Positions 5,029-64,000 of a stretch of 64,000 nucleotides of DNA are shown piece after piece. The translations under genes and the position numbers were made by a program. The DNA lies in contig JADNRZ010000003.1 in assembly GCA_015501605.1 (NCBI GenBank), positions 2,356,001 through 2,420,000 on the forward strand. The letters are read 5' to 3'. Positions within the stretch are counted from its first letter, which is position 1, and each line of letters begins with the position of its first letter. The notes beneath the pieces are model-generated. The model was not told the origin of the DNA. It ran no database searches and worked only from the letters and a program-made list of their open reading frames with translations. The stretch comes from Panaeolus papilionaceus. Lineage: Eukaryota; Basidiomycota; Agaricomycetes; Agaricales.

Positions 5029-6157
5029 GCGGGAGCTGCACAGGATCACGACATGCATCATCTTGCCAACGACTTGGTCTGCACAGATCGACCGCCCCTC
5101 ACCTCACCCTCTTTTCTATTTATCCACTCCCGAGATGCTGATACCTGACTGACATGGCATTCTCCCCCACCCTCCTTTCCTTATGGCATTATTATTACTG
5201 TTCATCTGCAGACATCATCCAAACATGCGGGTTCCGGGATTTTGATATCGATATTTATTACTATCTGCTTCCTCCAGAAAATCATCTTTGTCTAGGCTTC
5301 ATTGACATTACTAGTAGTGTACACGATCCTTTCTTCTCTATTTCTCTCTCTCTCTCTCTTCGTCTCCATGTCTCCCTTTCTTTCTATGCCTTTCACTTTC
5401 CTCGAGTCTCTCGTGTTGTTTTCTTTCGGTTCACCATCTCCCTCTTTTCAGTCGTTCTCTTTCTTCCTTTCTTTCCTCCTCCAACATATCGGCGACTAGT
5501 ATACATACCAAGTGACGCGGACCATCTATTCCTACCCACCCATATCAAGGTGCAGGATCGATTATCGATCACCTTGTAATGCTGTATCTCTAGTTACTAG
5601 CTAGTCAGTGTGTAGTAATGTACATGTTTTATGTCAAAAGTACCTCTTTTTCTCACTCTTTATCCCTTTATCTTTCTGACTGCTGAAATGGACTCTCAGC
5701 TGCGCATGCTGTTGCTAGTGTGTAGGACTGGGTGCAACTGAATGTACTGATATGCCGGGGTTATTTCATTTCGTCAACCTGAAATTAAGTGTAATCGGCA
5801 GTCTGGCGAATAGGCGTTTAAAAACTGAATGGACGACAGGAGGCTAGACTTGGACGCGTCGTCATTTGAATGTGGAAATGCGGCCCGTGTCCGCACCGTT
5901 GACGCGCTCAATGGTTTTGAGTTGAATGTCAACACCACATCCCTTTCCTTCTTACCACCACCCTGCTACGTGTATTGCATTCATGTCGTCGCCTATGGTT
6001 AAAGCCCATCCCATTTGGTTTAGCTCAGACTTGGACGGCTACACATTTGTCTTTTATTTTTTTGCTTATCTTGATAATTTCCGAATAAAACAGCCAAAGG
6101 CTCAAGTGTATTGTAACTGCAAGGGCTTCCGGTGAACAGATAACTCATGGAGCGTTG
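5029..6157. other. Intergenic region with pyrimidine-rich tract
   Basis: Contains the 3' UTR of the GTPase and a strongly C+T-rich stretch at about 5335-5480 including a (TC)n run. From about 5781 the sequence is homologous to 8214 onward, i.e. it is the promoter part of the DUF4436 duplication. No gene recognised. Confidence 0.5.
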
Positions 6158-6164
6158 TATAAAG
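6158..6164 (+). promoter_or_regulatory. TATA box of DUF4436 gene 1
   Basis: TATAAAG 95 nt upstream of the ATG; the same word is preserved at 8600-8606 in the duplicate, with nearly the same spacing. Confidence 0.5.
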
Positions 6165-6252
6165 TCTGGTTTGGTGCCGGTGTCTCTTGCTTGCCTTTCT
6201 CCGTCTTTTGCCTCTCTTTGTGTCTGGGCTACTTGTATCTGTCGCCTGTGCT

Positions 6253-7909
6253 ATGGATACTCAAGGCACACACACCGTCACATTCCGCGCAACCTCACCT
6301 CAAAGCCATGCTCCGACTGTGTCTGCATCTGGCATAACCCCCCAAGAAGAAGCACGCCGTCTAGCCAAATACCACAAGCACCTCCGATGGTGGATCATCT
6401 CTTGCGTCGTCTTTCTCATCTCAGCGCCTATCTTGTCCATCATGCTCGGTCTGAATTTGCACACCCGGGACTTTGAGTATAAGAATCCGGCGAACTCAAA
6501 TTTTAATGGACGCACGCTGTTGATGCAGGCTAGATTGATTGGTGCGGATCCTGCGATGGGGACGTTGACGTTGGATTGGAATATCCTTGGAGAGAAGGGC
6601 GTTGAGGAGTGTTATAAGGAACCTGGGGTTGAGGATCCAGCTGTCGTTGCGGCGAGGAGAAATTTGAGTGCTTGCACTGATGTTCAAATATTCTTTGATA
6701 TGTGCGTACCTGGAACCGGGATAATGCCTGTATGCCTGCTGACTCTTGTCTTTTTTTAAAAAACATAGGAATCTACTCCGTTCCAGCGACAACTCTGCTT
6801 CACGATCCAACGATATACCTATTCGCCCCATCTTCAAATTCAATGCAACGAGTTTCGCTCTGAATGACGTCCGAGCTAACACGCCAATTTTCCGCACTGA
6901 GCTCGCACTGTTTTCGACTGTGGATAAACACTCAAGTCTCATTTATTACCCTTTTGACAGGTAAGTTGCCGTGCAAAATACTTGCTGAAATGTTATGACC
7001 GTCTCTGCTTTCAGATACTCAGCAGAGGTTTTCATGTTCGCCCGAGATGCTAAAACAAACCTAACTGTCGGTATTGAGTTGGATAAGGCCCGGGGTATTG
7101 CAGTGTACGTGCGGTCTCTGATTGACATTTCATTGGGAATAATAAAAATGAATGATGCAGTGGTTTCTCAACCAATGTCGCGCCCCGTAAAGACGTATTT
7201 ATCCCGCCAGGGATGCTTGACATAACCATCGCCCTACGACGGGCGAATTTAGTCAGAGCATACAGCATCGTCGCAACACTCGCCATCTGTAAGCATTTCC
7301 GTCTCCAATGAACCATCGGTTTCTAATGTTCGGGTTAATACAACAACAGGGTCTATCACGCTCATTCTGCTACTTGTCATGCTTACCTCTGTGTTTTTCG
7401 GATTCCGGCAAAAAGGAGAAGTCCTCGTCATTCCAGTTGCCACCCTCTTCGCGTTTACTCAGTTGCGCCAAAGCATGCCAGGTGCACCGCCAGGGTTCGG
7501 TGAGTCAATTCTGTGTGGACCTTTGAAGCTAAATATGCTGATGGCTATTTCTAGGTGATATCGTAGGCACGTCTTGTTATTTTCAGCATGCTTTGATATA
7601 AATTTCCTAACACTGATGTCTAGACTTCGTCGGCTTGTTACCTTGCCTTGCGCTGTTGTCTCTATCGGTGTGTAACTCGTACCTTTTCCCCTACTTCCAG
7701 TCTGATATTCCCCTCATCCAGGCTGCACTCACATTGGGCGCTTTCATCTTGAGCGACCCAACTGAGACTCCAAAGAAGCTTTCATGGCAACTCATTTGTA
7801 CGTTCCTCTTCGTGTTTGCGGTTGAGAGCCCCAGACTGACATGACACCAGACGAAGCATTCCCTCAGCTTGACCGAAAGAAGAGCGAGAGAACGTTTGAC
7901 AAAAACTAA
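6253..7909 (+). CDS. DUF4436 transmembrane protein, copy 1
   Basis: Nine exons: 6253-6701, 6769-6960, 7015-7104, 7161-7288, 7350-7499, 7555-7566, 7624-7667, 7722-7797, 7851-7909; 1,200 nt, 399 aa. A short cytosolic N-terminus (HLRWW at about residues 43-47) precedes a first membrane helix at about 46-67, then a large non-membrane region with conserved words such as TLTLDWNILGEKG and FFDMN, then three or four hydrophobic helices (WSITLILLLVMLTSVFFGF; VIPVATLFAFTQL; FVGLLPCLALLSLS) and a short basic tail. This is the DUF4436 layout; function unknown. Exon 6 is only 12 nt and is followed by a GC-AG intron, which is needed to keep the frame through GDIVDFVG. The ATG at 6253 is preferred over the upstream in-frame ATG at 6187 because only 6253 is conserved in copy 2. 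Confidence 0.82.
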
Positions 7910-7981
7910 CGAGTGAGGATGCGGTATTGTGGGATTACACATTTATTTACAGTCTAGGGCTTCATGGGTTTCAATGTTCTT

Positions 7982-8035
7982 AGGTTATTTAGAAAGAATG
8001 AAAAATAGCTTCCATCGTCAGAATCTCCTCAAGCC
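7982..8035 (-). pseudogene. Relic of a GH127 C-terminus
   Basis: Read on the minus strand, 8035-7985 gives KLGLEEILTMEAIFHSF, which aligns with KLRLGEIPTMQASLHSF, the last residues of the GH127 gene at 10452. It lies in the same position relative to DUF4436 copy 1 as the live GH127 gene does to copy 2, so it was carried along by the duplication and then decayed. Confidence 0.75.
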
Positions 8036-8599
8036 CTAATTTAGATCTCTTATATAGAATTAAATAGTTAAAATACATTGGAAAGGAAGGATAGAGACTC
8101 GTAGAGGCGTATAGTATTGGTATAGTAGTAGGTCATGCGTTGATTTTCAACCTGGCACTCCCCGTCCACCGTGCTCGACTTGACCAACTCAGTTGAAATA
8201 ATAATTCGGGGGGGAAATGAAGTGCAATCGGCAGTCTGGCGAATAGGCGTTTAAAACTAAATGGGTGGCAGGAGGCTAGACTTGAATGAGCTGTCATTTT
8301 GAATGTGGAAATGCGGCCCGTGTCCGCACCGTTGATGCACTCAATGGTTTTGAATTGAATGTCAGCACCACATCCCTTTGCTTCTTACCACCACCCTGCT
8401 ATGTGTATTGCATTCATGTCGTCGCCTATGGATACAACCCATCCAATGCGGTTTAGCTTAGACTTGAACGGCTACTTCACTGCGGTGTATATTTGCTTAT
8501 CTTGTCAATTTCCGAATAAAACAGACGAAGTTTCTCAACAGGATCAACTGTATTGCAATTTCAAGGGCTTCCGGTGAACAGACAACTCATCGAGTGTTG

Positions 8600-8606
8600 T
8601 ATAAAG
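8600..8606 (+). promoter_or_regulatory. TATA box of DUF4436 gene 2
   Basis: TATAAAG 106 nt upstream of the ATG, conserved with the box of copy 1 within the duplicated promoter. Confidence 0.5.
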
Positions 8607-8705
8607 CCTGGTTTGACGCCGGTGTCTCTTGCCTGCCTTGCTCCCGCTTTCGCCTCACTCTGTGTCTGGGCTACTTGTATCCAACTTCTATCTGTCGTCT
8701 GAGCT

Positions 8706-10367
8706 ATGGATGCCCAAGGCACACATACCGTCACATTCCGCACAACCTCACCTCAAAGCCATGCTCCGACTCTTTCTGCATCTGGTATAACCCCCGAAGA
8801 AGAAGCACGCCACCTAGCCAAATATCGCAAGCACCTCCGATGGTGGATCATCTCCTGCGTCGTCTTTCTCATCTCAGCGCCTATCTTGTCTATCATGCTC
8901 GGTCTGAATTTGCACACCCGGGACTTTGAGTATAGGAACCCGGCTAATTCGAATTTTAACGGAAGAACGCTTTTGATGCAAGCTAGGTTGGTTAATGCGG
9001 ATCCTGCGATGGGGACGTTGACGTTGGATTGGAATATCCTTGGAGAGAAGGGCGTTGAGGAGTGTTATAAGGAACCTGGGGTTGAGGATCCAGCTGTCGT
9101 TGCGGCGAGGAGGAATTTGAGTGCTTGCACTGATGTTCAAATTTTCTTTGATATGTGTGTACCTCGAACGTGTGTCATAACTGCATCTTCTGACTGCCAT
9201 TTCCTTCTTTCGCATGAATCGCAGGAATCTACTTCGTTCCAGTGACAATGCTGCTTCACGATCTAACGATATACCAATACGGCCCATCTTCAAGTTCAAC
9301 GCGACAAGTTTTGCTCTGAATGACGTCCGAGCTAACACGCCAATTTTCCGCACTGAGCTCGCTCTGTTTTCGACGGTTGATAAACAATCGAGTCTTATTT
9401 ATTACCCTTTTGACGTGTAAGTGCCCATCTGAGTTATTGGCCCATATTTTTATAACTCTATTTTCAGATACTCAGCTGAGGTCTTCATGTTCGCCCAGGA
9501 TGCCAAAACCAATCAGACGGTTGGTATTGAATTGGCTCAAGCCCGAGGTATTGCGGTGTACGTCCTCTCTGTATTTTCATAAGAGGCGATGACGATTTAA
9601 TTGACTGATACAGTGGTTTCTCAACCAATGTCAAACCTCGTAACGACGTCTTCGTCCCTCCAGGGATGTTTGACATCAGCGTCTCCCTACGACGGGCGAA
9701 TTTAGTCAGGGCATACAGCATCGTCGCAACACTCGCCATATGTAAGCTATTCGCCTTCCAATCAACTATCGGTTTCTAATGTTCGGGTTAACACAACATC
9801 AGGGCTAATCACTCTAATTCTCCTCCTTGTCATGCTCACCTCTGTGTTTTTCGGATTCCGGCAAAAAGGAGAGGTTTTAGTCATCCCAGTTGCTACCCTA
9901 TTTGCGTTTACACAGTTGCGCCAAAGCATGCCAGGTGCACCGCCAGGGTTCGGTGAGTCAATTCTGTGTGGACCTTTGAAGCTAAATATGCTGATGGCTA
10001 TTTCTAGGTGATATCGTAGGCACGTCTTGTTATTTTCAGCATGCTTTGATATAAATTTCCTAACACTGATGTCTAGACTTCGTCGGCTTGTTACCTTGCC
10101 TTGCACTCCTGTCGCTTTCGGTATGTAACCCTTACCACTCCCTGCTTCCTATCTCATTTTTCTATTATCATCCAGGCTGCACTCACACTTGGCGCTTTTA
10201 TCTTGAGCGACCCAACTGAGACTCCAAAGAAGCTTTCATGGCAACTCATTTGTACGTTCTTCTTTATATTTGCGACTGAGGACCTTAGACTGATTGGCAT
10301 GATACCAGACGAGGCATTCCCTCAGCTTGACCGAAAGAAGAACCATAGAACGTTTGACAAAAATTGA
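8706..10367 (+). CDS. DUF4436 transmembrane protein, copy 2
   Basis: Nine exons with lengths identical to copy 1: 8706-9154, 9225-9416, 9468-9557, 9614-9741, 9803-9952, 10008-10019, 10077-10120, 10176-10251, 10309-10367; 399 aa. The TAG stop and frame change just upstream of this ATG show that translation starts here. The protein differs from copy 1 by scattered substitutions. The N-terminal helix, luminal/extracellular domain and C-terminal helices are all present. Exon 6 with its two flanking introns is identical to copy 1 in sequence, although the other introns differ (see findings). The 3' end is only 84 nt from the convergent GH127 gene. Function unknown. Confidence 0.82.
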
Positions 10368-10451
10368 GCAGGGGGGGTTGAGCATTGAGGATTTACTAAT
10401 GTACATATTTACAGTCAAGGGACTTATGGGGTTTCAATGTTCTTAGGTTAT

Positions 10452-13400
10452 TTAGAAAGAGTGCAAACTAGCTTGCATAGTCGGAATCTCTCCAAGTCTG
10501 AGTTTCGCAGCACCAAACGGCACCAACTTTGCCTTGAACAGCTTGCCTACGCATTTATTGGGACTGGGCGGCGGAGCTGCTGCAGTGCCGTTCTCTAAAC
10601 CCCAGTTGATTTGACACGCGGTGACGCTCATAGAGACTGGTTGGGCGTTGGGCGCCCAGGCGTAGAAGGGCATCGCGGAGGTTTTTGTGGATGTGTCGAG
10701 GACCTCGATGGTTGAGGGGTCGATGGCAACGCGCCATTCGGTTGTGGGGAGGAGGGTGTGGTCTTTAGTGTGGTCATCAGTCTGAAACAACGAGTATTAG
10801 TGATGAAGGGATATTAGACGTAAATGGGGGATAATTACTGGGGTTAGGAAGGCGGCTGGTGCGTTTGGGTAGAGGTTGCGAACATCACTGAGAGCCTGGG
10901 CACTCCTGCATAGAGGCAATTATCACTGAGCCATGTTTGAAAAATGGGTAATCAAGGATTTACCTTAAACCTGGTGTCATGGTATCGTTGTAAGACAGCT
11001 CAAGCGCGTAGAGTAGTGGCCCACGAGAGATTGCGACGGCGTTGTTGAACCGAGTTTCAATACTCAGCGGAGCGGAGAGTGAGATCAACACTGTTGTCGT
11101 GCCTGCCTTCGCCTGGCAAGGTGACGGGCTGAATATGGCGGGCAAGACAAGACATGAAGAGAAAGAGCACTTACCGCGATCTTCTGGAACGAGTTGGAGT
11201 CTGGGGAGACAGCAACGTTTTTACCACCATTGACGGAGAATTGAGTCTGACTGTTCTTGGCCCAATCAGGAATTCGAACGTTGAAATTAAACGCTTTGGT
11301 AGCCTTGATCGTATATTTGATCGTCAACCCGAAAGGATAGAGCGTATCAGCCGTCACTGCAAGCATAGCCAACGAATCAGCACTCTCCATGCCCGAAGTT
11401 CATAATAGGGGGAGAGGTCTCACCAGTAATGTGGTTCCCAGACCCAACCTCTCCCGAAAACTGTGCTGGGCCCAATAAAGCATGAATCAAAGAATTATCA
11501 GACTTGTCAATCATGAAGGAGTGGAACCAGAATTTGGGGTATGCTGCTGGGTGATTCACGGTGCAGCAAGGGTAGTTTCTATCAGCAATAAATGAGAGAT
11601 GGACGAACACGACATAACAGGCTCTTACGGTTCAAATCCATAGACGTTGGAGTTAGGCCCGTTACTACCCCAAGGGAATGGGTCCATGGTCTGTGCCCAG
11701 ATCTGGTTGACTAATGAGGGTCCTTCAGTGTCAACGCCAATTCAAAGCCAGTGTGCAAACCAACCTTGCTGGTCATATTGGTGTGCTGGAATCAAAGTCA
11801 AAGTCAATCAAACGACCACGACAGAGAAAAACAAATGGAACCTTACCAGACCAGTCAGGTAGGATGGCAGCCGGAAGGGCGTTATATGCTAAAGCTTTGT
11901 GAGGGCCGTGCAACGCAATCCTTCAATGCGAATAGACTCACCTAACCTCTCGGCTCTGTCAGCAATAGAGTTGTTACCCAGGATAGAGTAAATTGTCGCT
12001 AAAGAAAATATTTGCTCCCTGGAATATATGTCAACACCCAATTACGGTAACTATGAGGAACTTCAACGTACACCACGGCACAAAGCTCAGTCCTGTATGA
12101 AGACAGGAACGTTAGGAAGAATGAGTAGCAATGACGTTGTTGCCGTACCCTCTGGATGGGTTCAAACCCGCAAGATGCTCATCAGCCGCGAATGTTCCTG
12201 AAAGAAACGGTTCATAAACCCTAATAACTGGAGACTTTTGAAGGTGTAATTCACCTGAGGCTTGACCATGGTATTTATAGAGAAGATCAATGCGAGTGGT
12301 GGTACTTTCAATATCAGTAGGATCATTGGTGAAGCGCCATGCTACTGCTTCTGATTTGAGAGCTGCAAAGCGAAACGTTAATACCAAGACGGCCGGTCAT
12401 ATTCAGTAGTAGCTGACCTTCTCCTTGGTTGACCCCATGACTATAAAAATAAAATAAGAAAGGTGATCATTTTTTGAGCTACCAAACGACAACTAACTCA
12501 CGTTTGCATTGTCAGAGTTTGAGGAACGGTTTTCGGGAAATCGGCATCGGTAAACCAATTGTCCTTCCAAGAAAACCCTTGGTTTCGTACAAGCTGCATA
12601 GTTTCAAGCAACTGTGTTTCCTTTCCTGCCGTCTTCATGGGACTTCAATTTAGTCGAGCCATATAAAGATACATACCTTGAGGTGCATTGTCGTACAACC
12701 ATTGGAGGGCATAGACGAGCTGAGTGGAGTAACAGATACTGGATGTCAGCAGCGCAAATCAAATTCAATTGTCAATGCACGAGCTTACCTCCTCCCAGCG
12801 GACGTATTGATAATCAAACTGGAAACCCATAGAAGGATCGCCCTGTTGTTTTGTCTTCCAGATCGTATTGCAAAGTGCGGCAAATTTGTGCATAGAGTCA
12901 ATGATGCGGGGTGCTTGACTTGGATCGGCCTCTGCATATTGCTAGAAACATTCTGGATTTTAGTTCTGCTTGTATGACTAGGAAATGCAGCGCATACTTA
13001 CAACTAAACCGAGCAGAACGAGATAACGAGGCCATACAAGACGAGGGGTTGTTGCGTTTGCCACGAAAGGCTCAGGTCCCAGCCAGCCGTCGGAACCTTG
13101 ATGTTCCAACGTCCAATCCAGAAATTCACGAACTTCGCCTATGAGTTTGTTGTCTCCAATTTGGAAGGCAAGGGCCGTCATAGAATTGCTGTATGACGCT
13201 TGTTAAACGAGCTGCGCTTATGACCCGAGCCACAAGAATACTCACAACCAGTATGGTGCGGATTCATGCATGAGACTGTACTCGATGCTGCCTCCTTCGA
13301 CCCAGATGGATCCATTGACACTGGCAAGATTATAAGCACAAGCTTTGCATGGATAATAGGTTGTGTACGTACTAGCTGTCAAAGTTACGCAGACGTCCAG

Positions 13401-59877: not shown

Positions 59878-60206
59878 ATGCATACATCCGCAATTGGGCC
59901 CCTTGGACTGAGCAGACACGTGCTTGTTTGATATTGTCATTATACACTTTATTTTTTATCTTATATACTTTATTTATATATTTATATCTTATGTCACATA
60001 TTATGATTTAACTCCGTGTCCTCCTCCATCCCACATATTGTTGTTCTGTATTCACATTTTTTCACTCATTTATGTTATATAGACTCTTGGACTTTGGGAC
60101 TTAGTAATTCGTTCCTTTACCCATATTCACACTTGTTTAAATCTGTTTATAGTTTTACAAGTCCTTAATATAACAAGTGCTGCGTTTTAACCAAGTGTTT
60201 TGAGAT

Positions 60207-60553
60207 TGTAAGGGCACCTCAGACACACACAAGTCCTGGGGGAGATCCAAAGAGAAAGAGGTAAAGGATCAAACCCAGGTGAAACAGCTATTTAAGTGAT
60301 GAGCTGGCATTGGCATCAGCCTTGATGCCAAACAATGCCTTTGGGAATAAACAAAGGGAAACACAAAGGAATGACTATGTAACAGTGGCAACAACTAAAT
60401 AATGAATGAATGGCAACTAAAGGAGAGTGTAATATAATATCTATGAGTCCATGATATGTCCAGATAATGAGATAGAGCAAGGAAGATAGAGAAGGAGAGA
60501 CAGAGAGACAATAATAAGGAAAGGAATAGGAGGTAGCAGGAGATCCCCTGACA
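60207..60553 (-). repeat. 3' LTR of the Ty3/gypsy element
   Basis: 347 bp. In element sense it begins TGTCAGGGGATC directly after AGAGGGGGGGTAA (polypurine tract) and ends CCCTTACA, i.e. TG...CA. The interior is pyrimidine-rich near its 5' end. No second LTR lies in the window, so the borders come from the tract, TG/CA and comparison with the small element. Confidence 0.78.
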
Positions 60554-60564
60554 TTACCCCCCCT

Positions 60565-60698
60565 CTAGGATTGCTTCGCCCTCGAAGCATGAAGTCCAGC
60601 CTGTTTGTAAGGAATATGAGCATAAGTGGTCCTGATAACCTTTGGAGCCTTAGGATTCTCTGCATAGAAGTCCTTGATGAGGTCAGGAGCATGGACAT
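60565..60698 (-). pseudogene. End of gypsy pol, cut off by the nested insertion
   Basis: Continues the pol frame after removal of the insertion and one target copy: HAPDLIKDFYAENPKAPKVI, then a short end with TAG at 60567-60565. This is the usual region after a chromovirus chromodomain. Confidence 0.8.
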
Positions 60699-61000
60699 TG
60701 TCAGGGGATCTGTCACAGAACCCCCACCCTGGCGCGGTTATGGTGCACAGCCTGGTCATCATCTCTAGATCACTGTACAGCCGCCCGTTGCATCATTGAT
60801 ACCCCTGTCGTAGTGCGCAGCCTCCTTTCCTGATTGTTTCGTCACCATCATTTGATATCGCATAGCCTTAGCCTATTCTTAGATTTAGTGCACAGCATAC
60901 CGGTAGATAGTTTATCCGATGTAGTATATAGGCCAGTGGGGATCAGGATGATTCCTCACTCGATTATCAACTTGGCTTCTGGGCATTCCTATCCCTTACA
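60699..61000 (+). repeat. 5' LTR of the KH element
   Basis: 302 bp, TGTCAGGGGATC...CCCTTACA, identical by eye to 62163-62464. Contains a TATA box at 60925-60930 and the word ACTCGATTAT at 60958-60967, which the primer site can pair with. Confidence 0.93.
60925..60930 (+). promoter_or_regulatory. TATA box in the 5' LTR
   Basis: TATATA, 33 nt upstream of ACTCGATTAT (60958), the expected distance to a transcription start. Confidence 0.5.
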
Positions 61001-61002
61001 TC

Positions 61003-61012
61003 ATAATCGAGT
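61003..61012 (+). promoter_or_regulatory. Primer binding site (self-priming type)
   Basis: ATAATCGAGT, two bases after the LTR, is the exact reverse complement of ACTCGATTAT at 60958-60967 inside the LTR. In Tf1/sushi-type elements the 5' end of the transcript folds back on such a site and primes reverse transcription instead of a tRNA. The 2-nt gap agrees with integrase trimming to CA. Confidence 0.6.
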
Positions 61013-61101
61013 CTCTACAGCAGTCTGCACCTCCCTAGCTCACTGCACACCATCTACTCCTCATCCTACAAGCCCTACCCTTCGCCCACACCCTGCTCCC
61101 A

Positions 61102-62124
61102 ATGTCTACTACACCAGAGATGTCCTTGGAAGAATTCGTCACTGAACAGTTCGACCAACTCTATGAGCGGATGAGGCTGCTCCAGGAGGAGCTTCGCTCC
61201 GTCACCAACCAGCTCTCTACCCAACAGACTATTGCAGCTATCGCACCTACCCAACCCTCTCGCCGTCAGCGGAAGAAGGCTGAGCCTCCCGCCCCACCGG
61301 CTCCTACTCCCCCACAAGGCACTATTCCCACCCACCTTCATATGTCGGGCACCTACCCTCAGAAGGACGACAAACCCGATCAGCAGTTGCTCACTGTCAT
61401 TGTACCTGATGCGATGGCAGCGCACCTGGTTGGGCGAGGTGGAAGGGGTCTTAAACAGATCCATGACTTATCTGGTGCGCACATCCGAGCCTTTGAGGTA
61501 AAGGACGGATCAGCTGGTGCCCGCCACGTCTCTATTCGCGGTACCGACTCTCAAGTTGGTAATGCCCTCGTCGTATTGGGCAAGCGGCTCGCTCGTCGTC
61601 GAGTCCGCGCTCCTAGGCAGCGGGATGCTCCGGGTCCCGCTCGTGATGCCAGTGGGAGGCCAACCGCTGGGAAGTTCCGTGAAGCCCCTGTTCCCATCGT
61701 TCAGGCTGCTCCGGCCACTCAGCCCCCCTCGCCACCATCAATTCCTCAGTCCGCCGCTCTAACCCCTGCAGCACCGTCGGCAACTCCTACCCCTGCTCCA
61801 GGCTCTACTCCGGTCGTCCCCTCCATCGTCATGAACACGGCCGCCCCACCTTCACCGGTGGCTACCCCAGGTGCTCGATCAGCTTCGACGACACCTGTGA
61901 ACCAGCCCAACACTCCCATCGCGCCTACAGCCGTGATGCAGACCGCCAATCCTACCCCGGCACTCTCGCCTGGCTCGCCGATGAGCATTGATGCGATGAG
62001 AGCCCACTTCTCAGCACTTGCGCCCACTCTTGGGAACCCTATCCCCCCCACCGCTCCTTCAAGGGGTGGTCGCGGTGTGGTTTTCCGGGAGCGCAGTGGA
62101 CGAGGCGGTAGACGTGGAAGCTAA
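61102..62124 (+). CDS. KH-domain RNA-binding protein with coiled coil and RGG tail (putative gag substitute)
   Basis: Single-exon ORF, 340 aa. Residues about 8-45 form an amphipathic helix/coiled coil (FVTEQFDQLYERMRLLQEEL), which could mediate assembly. A basic/Pro-rich hinge follows, then a KH domain at about 96-163: LLTVIVPDAMAAHLVGRGG (strand, helix and the GxxG loop as GRGG at 111-114), GLKQIHDLSGAHIRA and HVSIRGTDSQVGNALVVLG. Residues about 170-315 are Pro/Ala/Thr-rich and disordered. The end carries RGGRGVVF and SGRGGRRGS (RGG-type). No retroviral zinc knuckle, protease or polymerase. The likely role is binding and packaging the element's own RNA (inference from position and domains). 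The start is the first ATG after the leader. Confidence 0.85.
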   Translation: MSTTPEMSLEEFVTEQFDQLYERMRLLQEELRSVTNQLSTQQTIAAIAPTQPSRRQRKKAEPPAPPAPTPPQGTIPTHLHMSGTYPQKDDKPDQQLLTVIVPDAMAAHLVGRGGRGLKQIHDLSGAHIRAFEVKDGSAGARHVSIRGTDSQVGNALVVLGKRLARRRVRAPRQRDAPGPARDASGRPTAGKFREAPVPIVQAAPATQPPSPPSIPQSAALTPAAPSATPTPAPGSTPVVPSIVMNTAAPPSPVATPGARSASTTPVNQPNTPIAPTAVMQTANPTPALSPGSPMSIDAMRAHFSALAPTLGNPIPPTAPSRGGRGVVFRERSGRGGRRGS

Positions 62125-62150
62125 GGGATTTGCTGGGGCAGCAAATCTAG

Positions 62151-62162
62151 ATGGGGAGATAG
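62151..62162 (+). promoter_or_regulatory. Polypurine tract of the KH element
   Basis: ATGGGGAGATAG directly before the 3' LTR (62163); in this class it is the primer of plus-strand DNA synthesis. Confidence 0.6.
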
Positions 62163-62464
62163 TGTCAGGGGATCTGTCACAGAACCCCCACCCTGGCGCG
62201 GTTATGGTGCACAGCCTGGTCATCATCTCTAGATCACTGTACAGCCGCCCGTTGCATCATTGATACCCCTGTCGTAGTGCGCAGCCTCCTTTCCTGATTG
62301 TTTCGTCACCATCATTTGATATCGCATAGCCTTAGCCTATTCTTAGATTTAGTGCACAGCATACCGGTAGATAGTTTATCCGATGTAGTATATAGGCCAG
62401 TGGGGATCAGGATGATTCCTCACTCGATTATCAACTTGGCTTCTGGGCATTCCTATCCCTTACA
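62163..62464 (+). repeat. 3' LTR of the KH element
   Basis: 302 bp, same sequence as 60699-61000, starting TG and ending CA, followed by the GACAT target duplication. Confidence 0.93.
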
Positions 62465-62469
62465 GACAT

Positions 62470-64000
62470 CGTCAGCTGGTTCCCAAGAATTCCAACCAGC
62501 ATCGTATCCTTCCCATTTGATCAGGTATCAAAGTTTGCCTCTGATGAACTTGCTGTTCAAAATCTTCTCCACAACAAACTCTTCAACATTGTCCACAAGC
62601 ACAGGAGGTGGGGGTAGCTTGGCTCTTCGACCAGAGATGGGGTCATAAGGAGCAGGAGTGAGTCTGACAACATGGAAGACTGGATGGATGCAGGAGAGGG
62701 ATTTAGGAAGCTGAAGACGGTAGGCATTCTTTCCAACACTAGAAATGACTGGGTAAGGACCAACTTGCTTGTGGGAGAGCTTCTTGGATGGCCAAGTGGT
62801 TTGGATGTCTGAAGCATCAAGGTAGACACAATCTCCAGGCTTGATCTCAGGAGCCTTGGTGCAACGCCAGTTGTAGTACCTAGCCATGTCCTCCTTAGCA
62901 GCTGCTAAGGCAGCACATGCTTCCTCAAGAGCAGTCTTCATCCTATCAGTGAACTCATTCACAGTCTCCATCCAGGAGGGAGGAAGAGGTTCAAAGCCCA
63001 TGTGAGGATGCTGACCAGAGTCTAGAAGGAAGGGAGTCTGCTGGGTGGAGGAGTGGACATGGTTGTTGTAGGCAAACTCAGCCATGGAAAGGATGTTGTA
63101 CCAGTTGTCCTGTTGCTCAGAGATGTAGAGCCTGAGGTATTGTTCCAACTCCTGGTTGACATGCTCAGTCTGCCCATCAGTTTGAGGGTGATAGGCAGTG
63201 CTACAAGCTGGCTCAATCCCAAGCAGCCTGTAGAGTTCAGTAGTGAACTCTGCAATGAAATGTGGACTGCGATCAGAGACTACCTTGGATGGGAGGCCTT
63301 GGAGTTTCCAGATATGGTCATGATACATGCAGGCAGTGCCTAGGGCAGAGACAGTGGTAGTGGTAGCAGTGAAGTGGGCGCATTTGGAAAGGGAGTCAAC
63401 AACAACCATGATGGCATCATAACCATTAGACTCTGGAAGCTCAACAATGAAGTCCACACTGATATGGTCCCAACGGTGGTCAGGAACGGCAAGGGGCTCA
63501 AGCTCTCCAAGGGGTTGCTGCCTGATGGTCTTGGTCCTAAGACACATGTCACAGGTGCTGGTGTAGAGTCCAATGAACTTAGACATGCGTGGCCACCAGT
63601 AGTTCCTAGACACAAGCTCCAAGGTCTTCCAACGTCCAGGGTGTCCAGCAAGAGTGGAGTCATGACAGAGAGCCACAATGCAACGACGAAGATCACCACC
63701 TGGTGGAACATAGAGCTTTCCACAGAAGTAGATAAGACCATCAGCTTCATCCCACTCTGAGGAGCGAAGAGACTGGGATCCAGTCTTTCTGAGCGCCTTG
63801 ACTGCCTTGGCCACAGTGTCCTCAAGATCAGAGGCCTCCTTGGAATGTCGACAGATCTCACAAACCAGAGAGTGTTCCTGTACAACAAATTCCAGACCTT
63901 CTAGTGCATGAATTGCAAACATCCCTGGGGTGAGGAGAGTGATGTTGTTACGGTTGACTTGTTCAGCGCGTACGAGTCCGGCTGTAGAGTCAACAAGAAC
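62470..64000 (-). pseudogene. Ty3/gypsy pol: integrase and start of the chromodomain
   Basis: The open frame enters from beyond 64000 and stops at TGA 62530-62528. Integrase landmarks: an H-H-C-C zinc region (CHDSTLAGHPGRWKTLELV ... TSTCDMCLRTK), catalytic D in HISVDFIVELPES, D in KVVSDRSPHFIAEF, and E in GQTEHVNQELEQYL. The C-terminal part has KPGDCVYLDASDI, KKLSHKQVGPYPV, HPVFHVVRL and VEKILNSKFIRGKL. After the stop the same frame continues YLIKWEGYDAGWNSWEPADD up to the insertion site, so the chromodomain is complete except for that TGA and the nested element. Reverse transcriptase would lie outside the window. Confidence 0.88.

What the first reader, a model, noticed from the sequence alone, without database searches (positions are those of the whole stretch)
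60699..62464. Complete small LTR retroelement whose only gene is a KH-domain RNA-binding protein
LTRs, target duplications, primer site and polypurine tract are all present, yet the single ORF has coiled coil + KH + RGG and no gag zinc knuckle, protease, RT or integrase. A KH protein in place of gag would be a different way to select RNA for packaging. Identical LTRs and an open ORF suggest recent or current activity.
Basis: partly seen in the sequence, partly recalled or inferred. Interest (0 to 1): 0.88.

Follow-up and report, generated by a model that had tools for sequence, protein, structure and literature searches.

The report
Mobile element encoding a KH protein
A small LTR mobile element in what looks like a mushroom genome carries only one gene, an RNA-binding KH protein that is intact in all 22 full copies found and has relatives in other fungi, and it probably borrows the copying enzymes of a larger retrotransposon with matching ends.

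Summary
Window 60699-62464 is a complete 1766-bp LTR element: identical 302-bp LTRs, a 5-bp target duplication, one 340-aa ORF with a Pfam KH_1 domain (E 3.9e-9). No shortened copy keeping the LTR/primer junction was found. ORF differences are depleted in amino-acid changes (ratio 0.45, P 4.5e-4, with caveats). It is not a recent host capture: a profile search gives 171 hits at E<=1e-5.

The ORF shows no capsid, protease, RT or integrase. A likely helper is the chromovirus 'GyA' (1782-aa Gag-Pol): shared 13-nt LTR start, 8-nt LTR end, similar PPT junction, 5-bp duplications and the same self-priming layout. Its Gag, read in one copy, shows no zinc knuckle.

Best model: the KH protein binds its own transcript in cis and feeds it to GyA-type reverse transcription. 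The cis-acting parts are well supported; RNA binding, packaging, and the LTR context of relatives elsewhere are untested. New variant of non-autonomous LTR elements.

The parts
60694..60698 (.). 5-bp target-site duplication, left (GACAT)
60699..61000 (+). 5' LTR, 302 bp; starts TGTCAGGGGATCT, ends CCCTTACA (both shared with chromovirus GyA)
60925..60931 (+). TATA box, 33 nt upstream of the predicted mRNA start
60958..60967 (+). Predicted mRNA 5' end / self-primer ACTCGATTAT; same 10 nt in both LTRs of 22 of 22 copies
61003..61012 (+). Self-primer binding site ATAATCGAGT, 2 nt after the LTR; unchanged in 21 of 22 copies
61001..61101 (+). C-rich leader (46% C, 10% G)
61102..62124 (+). Only long ORF between the LTRs on this strand with a recognised domain, 340-aa KH protein; full length in 22 of 22 copies (342 aa in L021)
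61126..61224 (+). N-terminal helix, residues 9-41 (coiled-coil candidate, oligomerisation not tested)
   Evidence: block pLDDT 77-95
61384..61605 (+). KH fold, residues 95-168; Pfam match 98-156; GxxG loop at residues 111-114
61975..61998 (+). SPMSIDAM, a motif seen in many relatives as [ST]PM-x-[IV]-[DG]-A
62062..62121 (+). RG-rich C-terminal tail, residues 321-340
62150..62162 (+). Polypurine tract GATGGGGAGATAG; with the LTR start 83% identical over 36 bp to the GyA PPT/LTR junction
62163..62464 (+). 3' LTR, identical to the 5' LTR
62465..62469 (.). 5-bp target-site duplication, right (GACAT)
60205..60698 (-). Part of the GyA-family fragment that the element landed in (LTR below about 60553, then the end of Pol)
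   Evidence: 96% to L049
62465..63946 (-). Rest of that GyA fragment (Integrase_H2C2, SH3_Tf2-1; rve just under its cut-off)
   Evidence: 96% to L049

Best explanation
This is a helper-dependent LTR retroelement. Its LTR promoter makes an mRNA starting at 60958 (inferred from TATA spacing and the self-primer). The mRNA has two roles. It is translated into a KH protein, which I infer self-associates through its N-terminal helix, grips its own RNA (perhaps the C-rich leader) with the hnRNP K-like KH domain and RG tail, and so marks its own transcript in cis. The same RNA is then taken up and copied by proteins of the chromovirus GyA. The first 10 nt fold back on the site just after the LTR as primer, as in Tf1/Tj1, and GyA integrase inserts the product through the shared LTR ends with 5-bp target duplications. 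Shown from sequence: anatomy, copies, intact ORFs, shared termini, self-complementary primer site. Inferred: transcription start, RNA binding, cis preference, use of GyA proteins and particles.
For: Copies: 22 full copies, all with 5-bp duplications and full ORFs, 12 of 22 with identical LTRs. Helper: GyA copy L049 has Retrotrans_gag, RT, RNase H, integrase and chromodomain above Pfam cut-offs; 6 of 6 sampled GyA copies, chosen because their LTR starts lie about 5.8 kb apart, have identical LTRs and 5-bp duplications. Same 13-nt LTR start and 8-nt LTR end, 36 bp at 83% over PPT and LTR start, same primer layout with different letters (10 nt after a 2-nt gap, TATA-like box 31-33 nt upstream in both). 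The 13-nt start occurs 208 times, 0 in the reversed control: 61 exact ones are KH LTR starts and at least 100 are GyA starts (the 100 listed of 150 with up to 2 mismatches). The self-primer helix is in the minimum-energy fold of the KH leader, z -2.5, 1 of 200 shuffles as good. ORF function: the LTR/primer-site junction has 22 hits, matching the 22 copies; 22 amino-acid, 30 silent and 0 stop changes against 30.7/19.7/1.5 expected, P 4.5e-4; 171 profile hits at E<=1e-5, KH_1 in 51 of 52 aligned members, a GxxG-loop pattern in 106 of 126. Closest solved chains by sequence: hnRNP K.
Against: No expression, binding or transposition data. Absence of stops alone is not significant (P 0.16). Singleton differences, many of which should be post-insertion, are as depleted as shared ones (ratio 0.44, P 0.006; shared 0.47, P 0.06), so an unmodelled mutation bias is possible. 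The C-terminal 40 residues show no constraint among copies (4 amino-acid, 1 silent change). GyA's self-primer helix is not in its own minimum-energy fold. The two LTRs share little beyond ends, primer layout and PPT. Two older related solo LTRs end CCCCTAACA, not CCCTTACA, and one of them has a changed self-primer. The LTR context of relatives could not be read. GyA Gag-Pol was read in one copy only; its protease matches are below cut-off.
Confidence: 0.5

Rival explanations
1. The KH protein is an accessory factor (anti-silencing, RNA stability, nuclear export or translation) and packaging is done by GyA Gag alone, recognising cis signals.
For: GyA supplies a capsid-type Gag domain. TRIMs are described as moving in trans with no protein of their own (PMC10886601 passages). 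The KH protein has no capsid match. Long proline/serine-rich, motif-bearing stretches could be protein-interaction tracts.
Against: Constraint on the ORF and the absence of junction-bearing ORF-less copies suggest the protein acts on the RNA that encodes it; a freely diffusing factor would let ORF-less copies spread. The copies may be too young to show this.
Confidence: 0.3
2. The KH protein is a strongly derived Gag, so the element is a TR-GAG in disguise.
For: Single ORF between LTRs, N-terminal helix, disordered tail with a [ST]PM-x-[IV]-[DG]-A motif; 1 of 126 relatives (P0003) ends in a zinc-knuckle-like CX2CX6HX3C. A resemblance of the motif to Gag linkers is recalled, not found by a call.
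Against: No Retrotrans_gag match in the window protein or in any of 52 aligned members at E<=0.01; no confident fold besides the helix and KH; 0 of 126 have a strict CCHC; the tail motif was found in no other frame of the fetched loci.
Confidence: 0.1
3. A host gene captured by chance and carried as a passenger.
For: KH domains are common; the genome has KH loci outside the element.
Against: No close host relative: after the 22 copies the best hit is E 0.011. 171 profile hits, with shared layout in the aligned set. Fewer amino-acid changes than expected.
Confidence: 0.07
4. The element is moved by another retrotransposon, or the self-primer match is a coincidence.
For: GyA's best fold lacks the helix; other Gypsy-like frames exist in the fetched loci; older related LTRs have a different end.
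Against: 10-nt complements at the same offset in both families, 7 and 87 of 20000 shuffles; shared 13-nt and 8-nt ends; no TGG start just after the LTR (read).
Confidence: 0.12

Closest known systems
TR-GAG elements (e.g. Arabidopsis AT5TE33540; PMC8704663, passages read)
   Same: LTRs plus one ORF; can transpose although most proteins are missing; related autonomous element exists
   Different: Encodes Gag; here a KH protein with no capsid match
TRIM / Helenus / Cassandra (PMC10886601, passages read; Helenus also reported there from three Agaricomycetes)
   Same: Small, LTR-bounded, PBS and PPT, 5-bp duplications in fungi, moved in trans
   Different: Said there to be under 1000 bp (Helenus up to 1263 bp) and to encode no mobilisation proteins; this one is 1766 bp with a conserved ORF
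Tf1/Tj1 self-primed elements (PMC4600332, passages read)
   Same: Primer site complementary to the (here predicted) mRNA 5' end
   Different: Tj1 encodes Gag, PR, RT and IN; this element has none
LINE ORF1p (PMC3905857, passages read)
   Same: Works-like analogy: coiled coil plus RNA-binding domain, RNP with its own RNA
   Different: RRM or zinc knuckles, in non-LTR elements; no family relation claimed
Bdelloid LTR elements with captured ORF3 (PMC5408684, passages read)
   Same: Extra captured gene in LTR elements
   Different: There it accompanies gag and pol; here it stands alone
hnRNP K, PCBP, Nova KH domains
   Same: Nearest solved KH domains by sequence (that the hnRNP K chains are KH3 is recalled)
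   Different: Host multi-KH proteins (recalled); here one KH with its own layout

Membership tests
LTR retroelement | Paired LTRs, TG..CA ends, fixed-length target duplication | tested here: met
   22 of 22 copies, 5 bp; 17 of 18 solo LTRs examined
LTR retroelement | Primer binding site and polypurine tract | tested here: met
   self-primer site 2 nt after the LTR; PPT short and imperfect
Autonomous LTR retrotransposon | Encodes gag, protease, RT, integrase | tested here: not met
TRIM | Under 1 kb, encodes no mobilisation protein (PMC10886601) | tested here: not met
   1766 bp with a conserved ORF
TR-GAG | Single ORF with a GAG domain (PMC8704663) | tested here: not met
   KH_1, no Retrotrans_gag
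Self-primed (Tf1-type) element | Primer site complementary to the mRNA 5' end | tested here: inconclusive
   Complement present, but the mRNA end is predicted, not measured
Self-primed (Tf1-type) element | Reverse transcription starts from the mRNA's own 5' end | not testable with these tools
   needs RNA/cDNA
Type I KH domain (KH_1) | Pfam match, GxxG loop, beta-alpha-alpha-beta-beta-alpha order | tested here: met
Type I KH domain (KH_1) | Nucleic-acid binding | not testable with these tools
   inferred from the intact loop
Satellite of chromovirus GyA | Shared LTR ends and junctions | tested here: met
Satellite of chromovirus GyA | Depends on GyA proteins for movement | not tested
LINE ORF1p | RRM or zinc-knuckle domain in a non-LTR element | tested here: not met
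   used as analogy only

The most novel reading that the evidence does not exclude
A widespread class of LTR satellites in mushroom-forming fungi that encode no capsid or enzyme but a dedicated KH nucleoprotein, which selects their own RNA in cis and loads it into particles of a helper chromovirus whose Gag has no zinc knuckle: a KH domain doing the nucleocapsid's job, comparable to a satellite virus.
Probability: 0.35. Interest if true: 0.9.

Novelty: new variant of a known kind. Interest (0 to 1): 0.77.

Why it matters
Known non-autonomous LTR elements carry no gene or a Gag (PMC10886601, PMC8704663, passages). A deep family whose only gene is an RNA-binding KH protein would show another way for a retroelement RNA to be chosen and protected, and would make cis preference in helper-dependent retroelements testable with one small protein and a named candidate helper. 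A Rous sarcoma virus study names KH domains among RNA-binding domains that might be inserted into NC in further work (PMC7232437, passages read); this may be a natural parallel. I found no report of such an element. Ten paper searches were run, seven of them with the term 'KH domain'. In the seven listed papers that showed a KH count, I looked at the KH passages of all but those not shown in the lists (six papers): none describes a KH gene inside an LTR element. One search listed only 20 of 67 papers. The library lacks most subscription papers and all preprints, and Repbase was not searched.

Tried and rejected
Recent host capture: rejected. Shortened derivatives that keep the LTR/primer-site junction: none (up to 2 mismatches); derivatives that lost that junction would be missed. 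Relatives in viral contigs and in prokaryote genomes: none confirmed (79 and 158 pattern stretches). PHROGs: no match at E<=0.01. Reading the LTR context of relatives: not possible, the metagenome collection had no scans. Weak indirect evidence only: 45 of 116 listed contig lengths (120 rows listed of 171; 4 rows without a length dropped) are 1450-1800 bp, about the size of one collapsed unit; no control distribution. Kinship of the tail motif to Gag linkers: recalled resemblance; the motif was found only in the KH element among the fetched loci. Clustering with GyA: 7 of 22 copies lie within 5 kb of one of the 100 listed GyA LTR starts (of 150), about 0.5 expected at random; general clustering of transposons could explain it. 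A first fold of the GyA leader began 6 nt inside the predicted start and was repeated correctly. Fold comparison was not available. P0052, the weakest hit (E 6.2e-3, several other domains), was left out of the alignment.

Full report
Observation. Two 302-bp LTRs (60699-61000, 62163-62464) are identical and flanked by GACAT. The long ORF 61102-62124 encodes 340 aa. Pfam at E up to 1 recognises only KH_1, residues 98-156, E 3.9e-9, above the curated cut-off. Other frames of 60 aa or more exist between the LTRs but were not scanned for domains. AlphaFold with 52 sequences gives a confident helix at 9-41 and a KH fold at 95-168 in type I order; mean pLDDT is 64.8 and the rest is low confidence. 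The solved chains closest by sequence are hnRNP K, best E 4.7e-8.

Copies. The genome (50.85 Mb, 71 contigs, unnamed) has 22 full-length copies at 98-100% identity (which scored 40 of 48 candidates). The protein search scored all 34 candidates: 22 are these copies and the next hit is E 0.011. All 22 carry perfect 5-bp duplications and full-length ORFs; 12 of 22 have identical LTRs, 9 differ at 1 or 2 places, one at 6. The LTR start is found 62 times with up to 2 mismatches: 44 in full copies and 18 others. Of those 18, 17 were fetched; C1:923041 was not. One more, L046, has a small deletion and is not counted by the pattern. Of the 18 solo LTRs fetched 17 have a perfect 5-bp duplication. The junction between LTR and primer site occurs 22 times with up to 2 mismatches, so no derivative that kept this junction but lost the ORF is present.

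Selection. Over 21 equal-length copies there are 82 variable positions (30 outside, 52 inside the ORF), all transitions, 64 of them at CpG; L021, two codons longer, was left out. In the ORF there are 22 amino-acid changes, 30 silent changes and no stop. With mutation classes and CpG context held fixed, 30.7, 19.7 and 1.5 are expected (P 4.5e-4; ratio 0.45). By region (amino-acid, silent): residues 1-90: 2, 3; 91-170: 5, 11; 171-300: 11, 15; 301-340: 4, 1, so the tail shows no constraint among copies. Further caveats: no stop at all has P 0.16, and singletons (14 against 19; P 0.006) are as depleted as shared changes (8 against 11; P 0.06), although many singletons should have arisen after insertion. 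Part of the signal may be mutation bias. The stronger evidence for function is conservation between species.

Family. One sequence search gave 52 hits at E<=0.01, of which 51 were aligned with the window protein. A profile search gave 171 at E<=1e-5, 120 of them listed; in both only the 8000 candidates sharing most words were scored, so these are lower bounds. KH_1 is found in 51 of 52 aligned members. The nearly invariant columns all lie between residues 108 and 171. By my patterns over 126 relatives, 106 have the GxxG loop, 89 at least one P[ST][VI]xM, 68 the [ST]PM-type motif, 50 an RG tail, none a strict CCHC; one (P0003) ends in a knuckle-like CX2CX6HX3C. I could not read the DNA around any relative, so whether they are LTR elements is open.

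Helper. The element sits in a fragment of a Ty3/gypsy element, 96% identical to L049. L049 is an intact member: 6261 bp, identical 408-bp LTRs, 5-bp duplication, one 1782-aa open frame with Retrotrans_gag, RT, RNase H, integrase and chromodomain above cut-off and protease matches below it. Ends of five further copies, chosen for LTR starts about 5.8 kb apart, also show identical LTRs and 5-bp duplications. No CCHC was found in L049, by pattern or Pfam, while two Gag-like frames judged by eye in other fetched loci (L037, L048) have one. Shared with the KH element: TGTCAGGGGATCT at the LTR start, CCCTTACA at the end, 36 bp at 83% over PPT and LTR start. The 13-mer occurs 208 times in the genome, 0 in the reversed control: 61 are KH LTR starts and at least 100 are GyA starts (150 with up to 2 mismatches, 100 listed). 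Some belong to neither, such as two older LTRs with a different end.

Priming. Two nt after each LTR lies a 10-nt sequence exactly complementary to a stretch of that LTR: ACTCGATTAT in the KH element, ACCTCTTTCT in GyA. In both a TATA-like box lies 31-33 nt upstream of that stretch. Shuffled LTRs contain the complement in 7 (KH) and 87 (GyA) of 20000 trials, uncorrected for the 25 offsets scanned. The KH leader folds with this helix (z -2.5); the GyA leader's best fold does not. This is the layout of Tf1/Tj1 self-priming (PMC4600332, passages). Two families that keep the same layout with different letters are what a shared mechanism predicts.

Mechanism. Most likely the RNA is copied and integrated by GyA-type proteins (supported by cis-acting sequence, not shown in action), and the KH protein binds the element's own RNA in cis (inferred). 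The leader is 46% C after the LTR, and hnRNP K-type KH domains prefer C-rich strands (recalled), a suggestive fit only. That GyA Gag has no visible knuckle makes a supplied RNA-binding protein attractive, but Ty1 Gag also lacks one and binds RNA through a basic C-terminal region (PMC4974528, passages).

Comparison. Non-autonomous LTR elements are known as TRIMs (PMC10886601) and TR-GAGs (PMC8704663), and LTR elements with extra captured ORFs are known in rotifers (PMC5408684). Passages were also seen in PMC2864245, PMC4905642 and PMC12810828; no paper was read whole. None of the passages seen describes a KH protein as the sole gene of an LTR element. I file this as a new variant of non-autonomous LTR elements, not as a TRIM or TR-GAG, whose defining features were tested and not met.

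Species.

Noticed in passing
L047:6754-7060 (C5:40300-40606) and C19:547166-547466: Older related solo LTRs, 89-91% to KH LTRs in the best matches and 94% to each other; same start but ending CCCCTAACA, one with a changed self-primer. No internal region found. Perhaps an earlier wave with another helper.
   Followed up: partly
window 62531-63922 (-): GyA fragment with several Arg to Cys/Trp/Gln differences from L049 by eye, as expected of CpG decay.
   Followed up: no
P0003: Only relative of 126 with a zinc-knuckle-like C-terminus (CX2CX6HX3C), after an SPM motif.
   Followed up: partly
L049 (C4:780297-787000): GyA Gag-Pol has a Retrotrans_gag domain but no CCHC, unlike Gag-like frames in L037 and L048.
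   Followed up: partly
window 5781-8027 and 8214-10490: 2.3-kb direct repeats, 85% identical.
   Followed up: no
21 equal-length KH copies: All 82 variable positions are transitions and 64 are at CpG: methyl-CpG type decay.
   Followed up: partly
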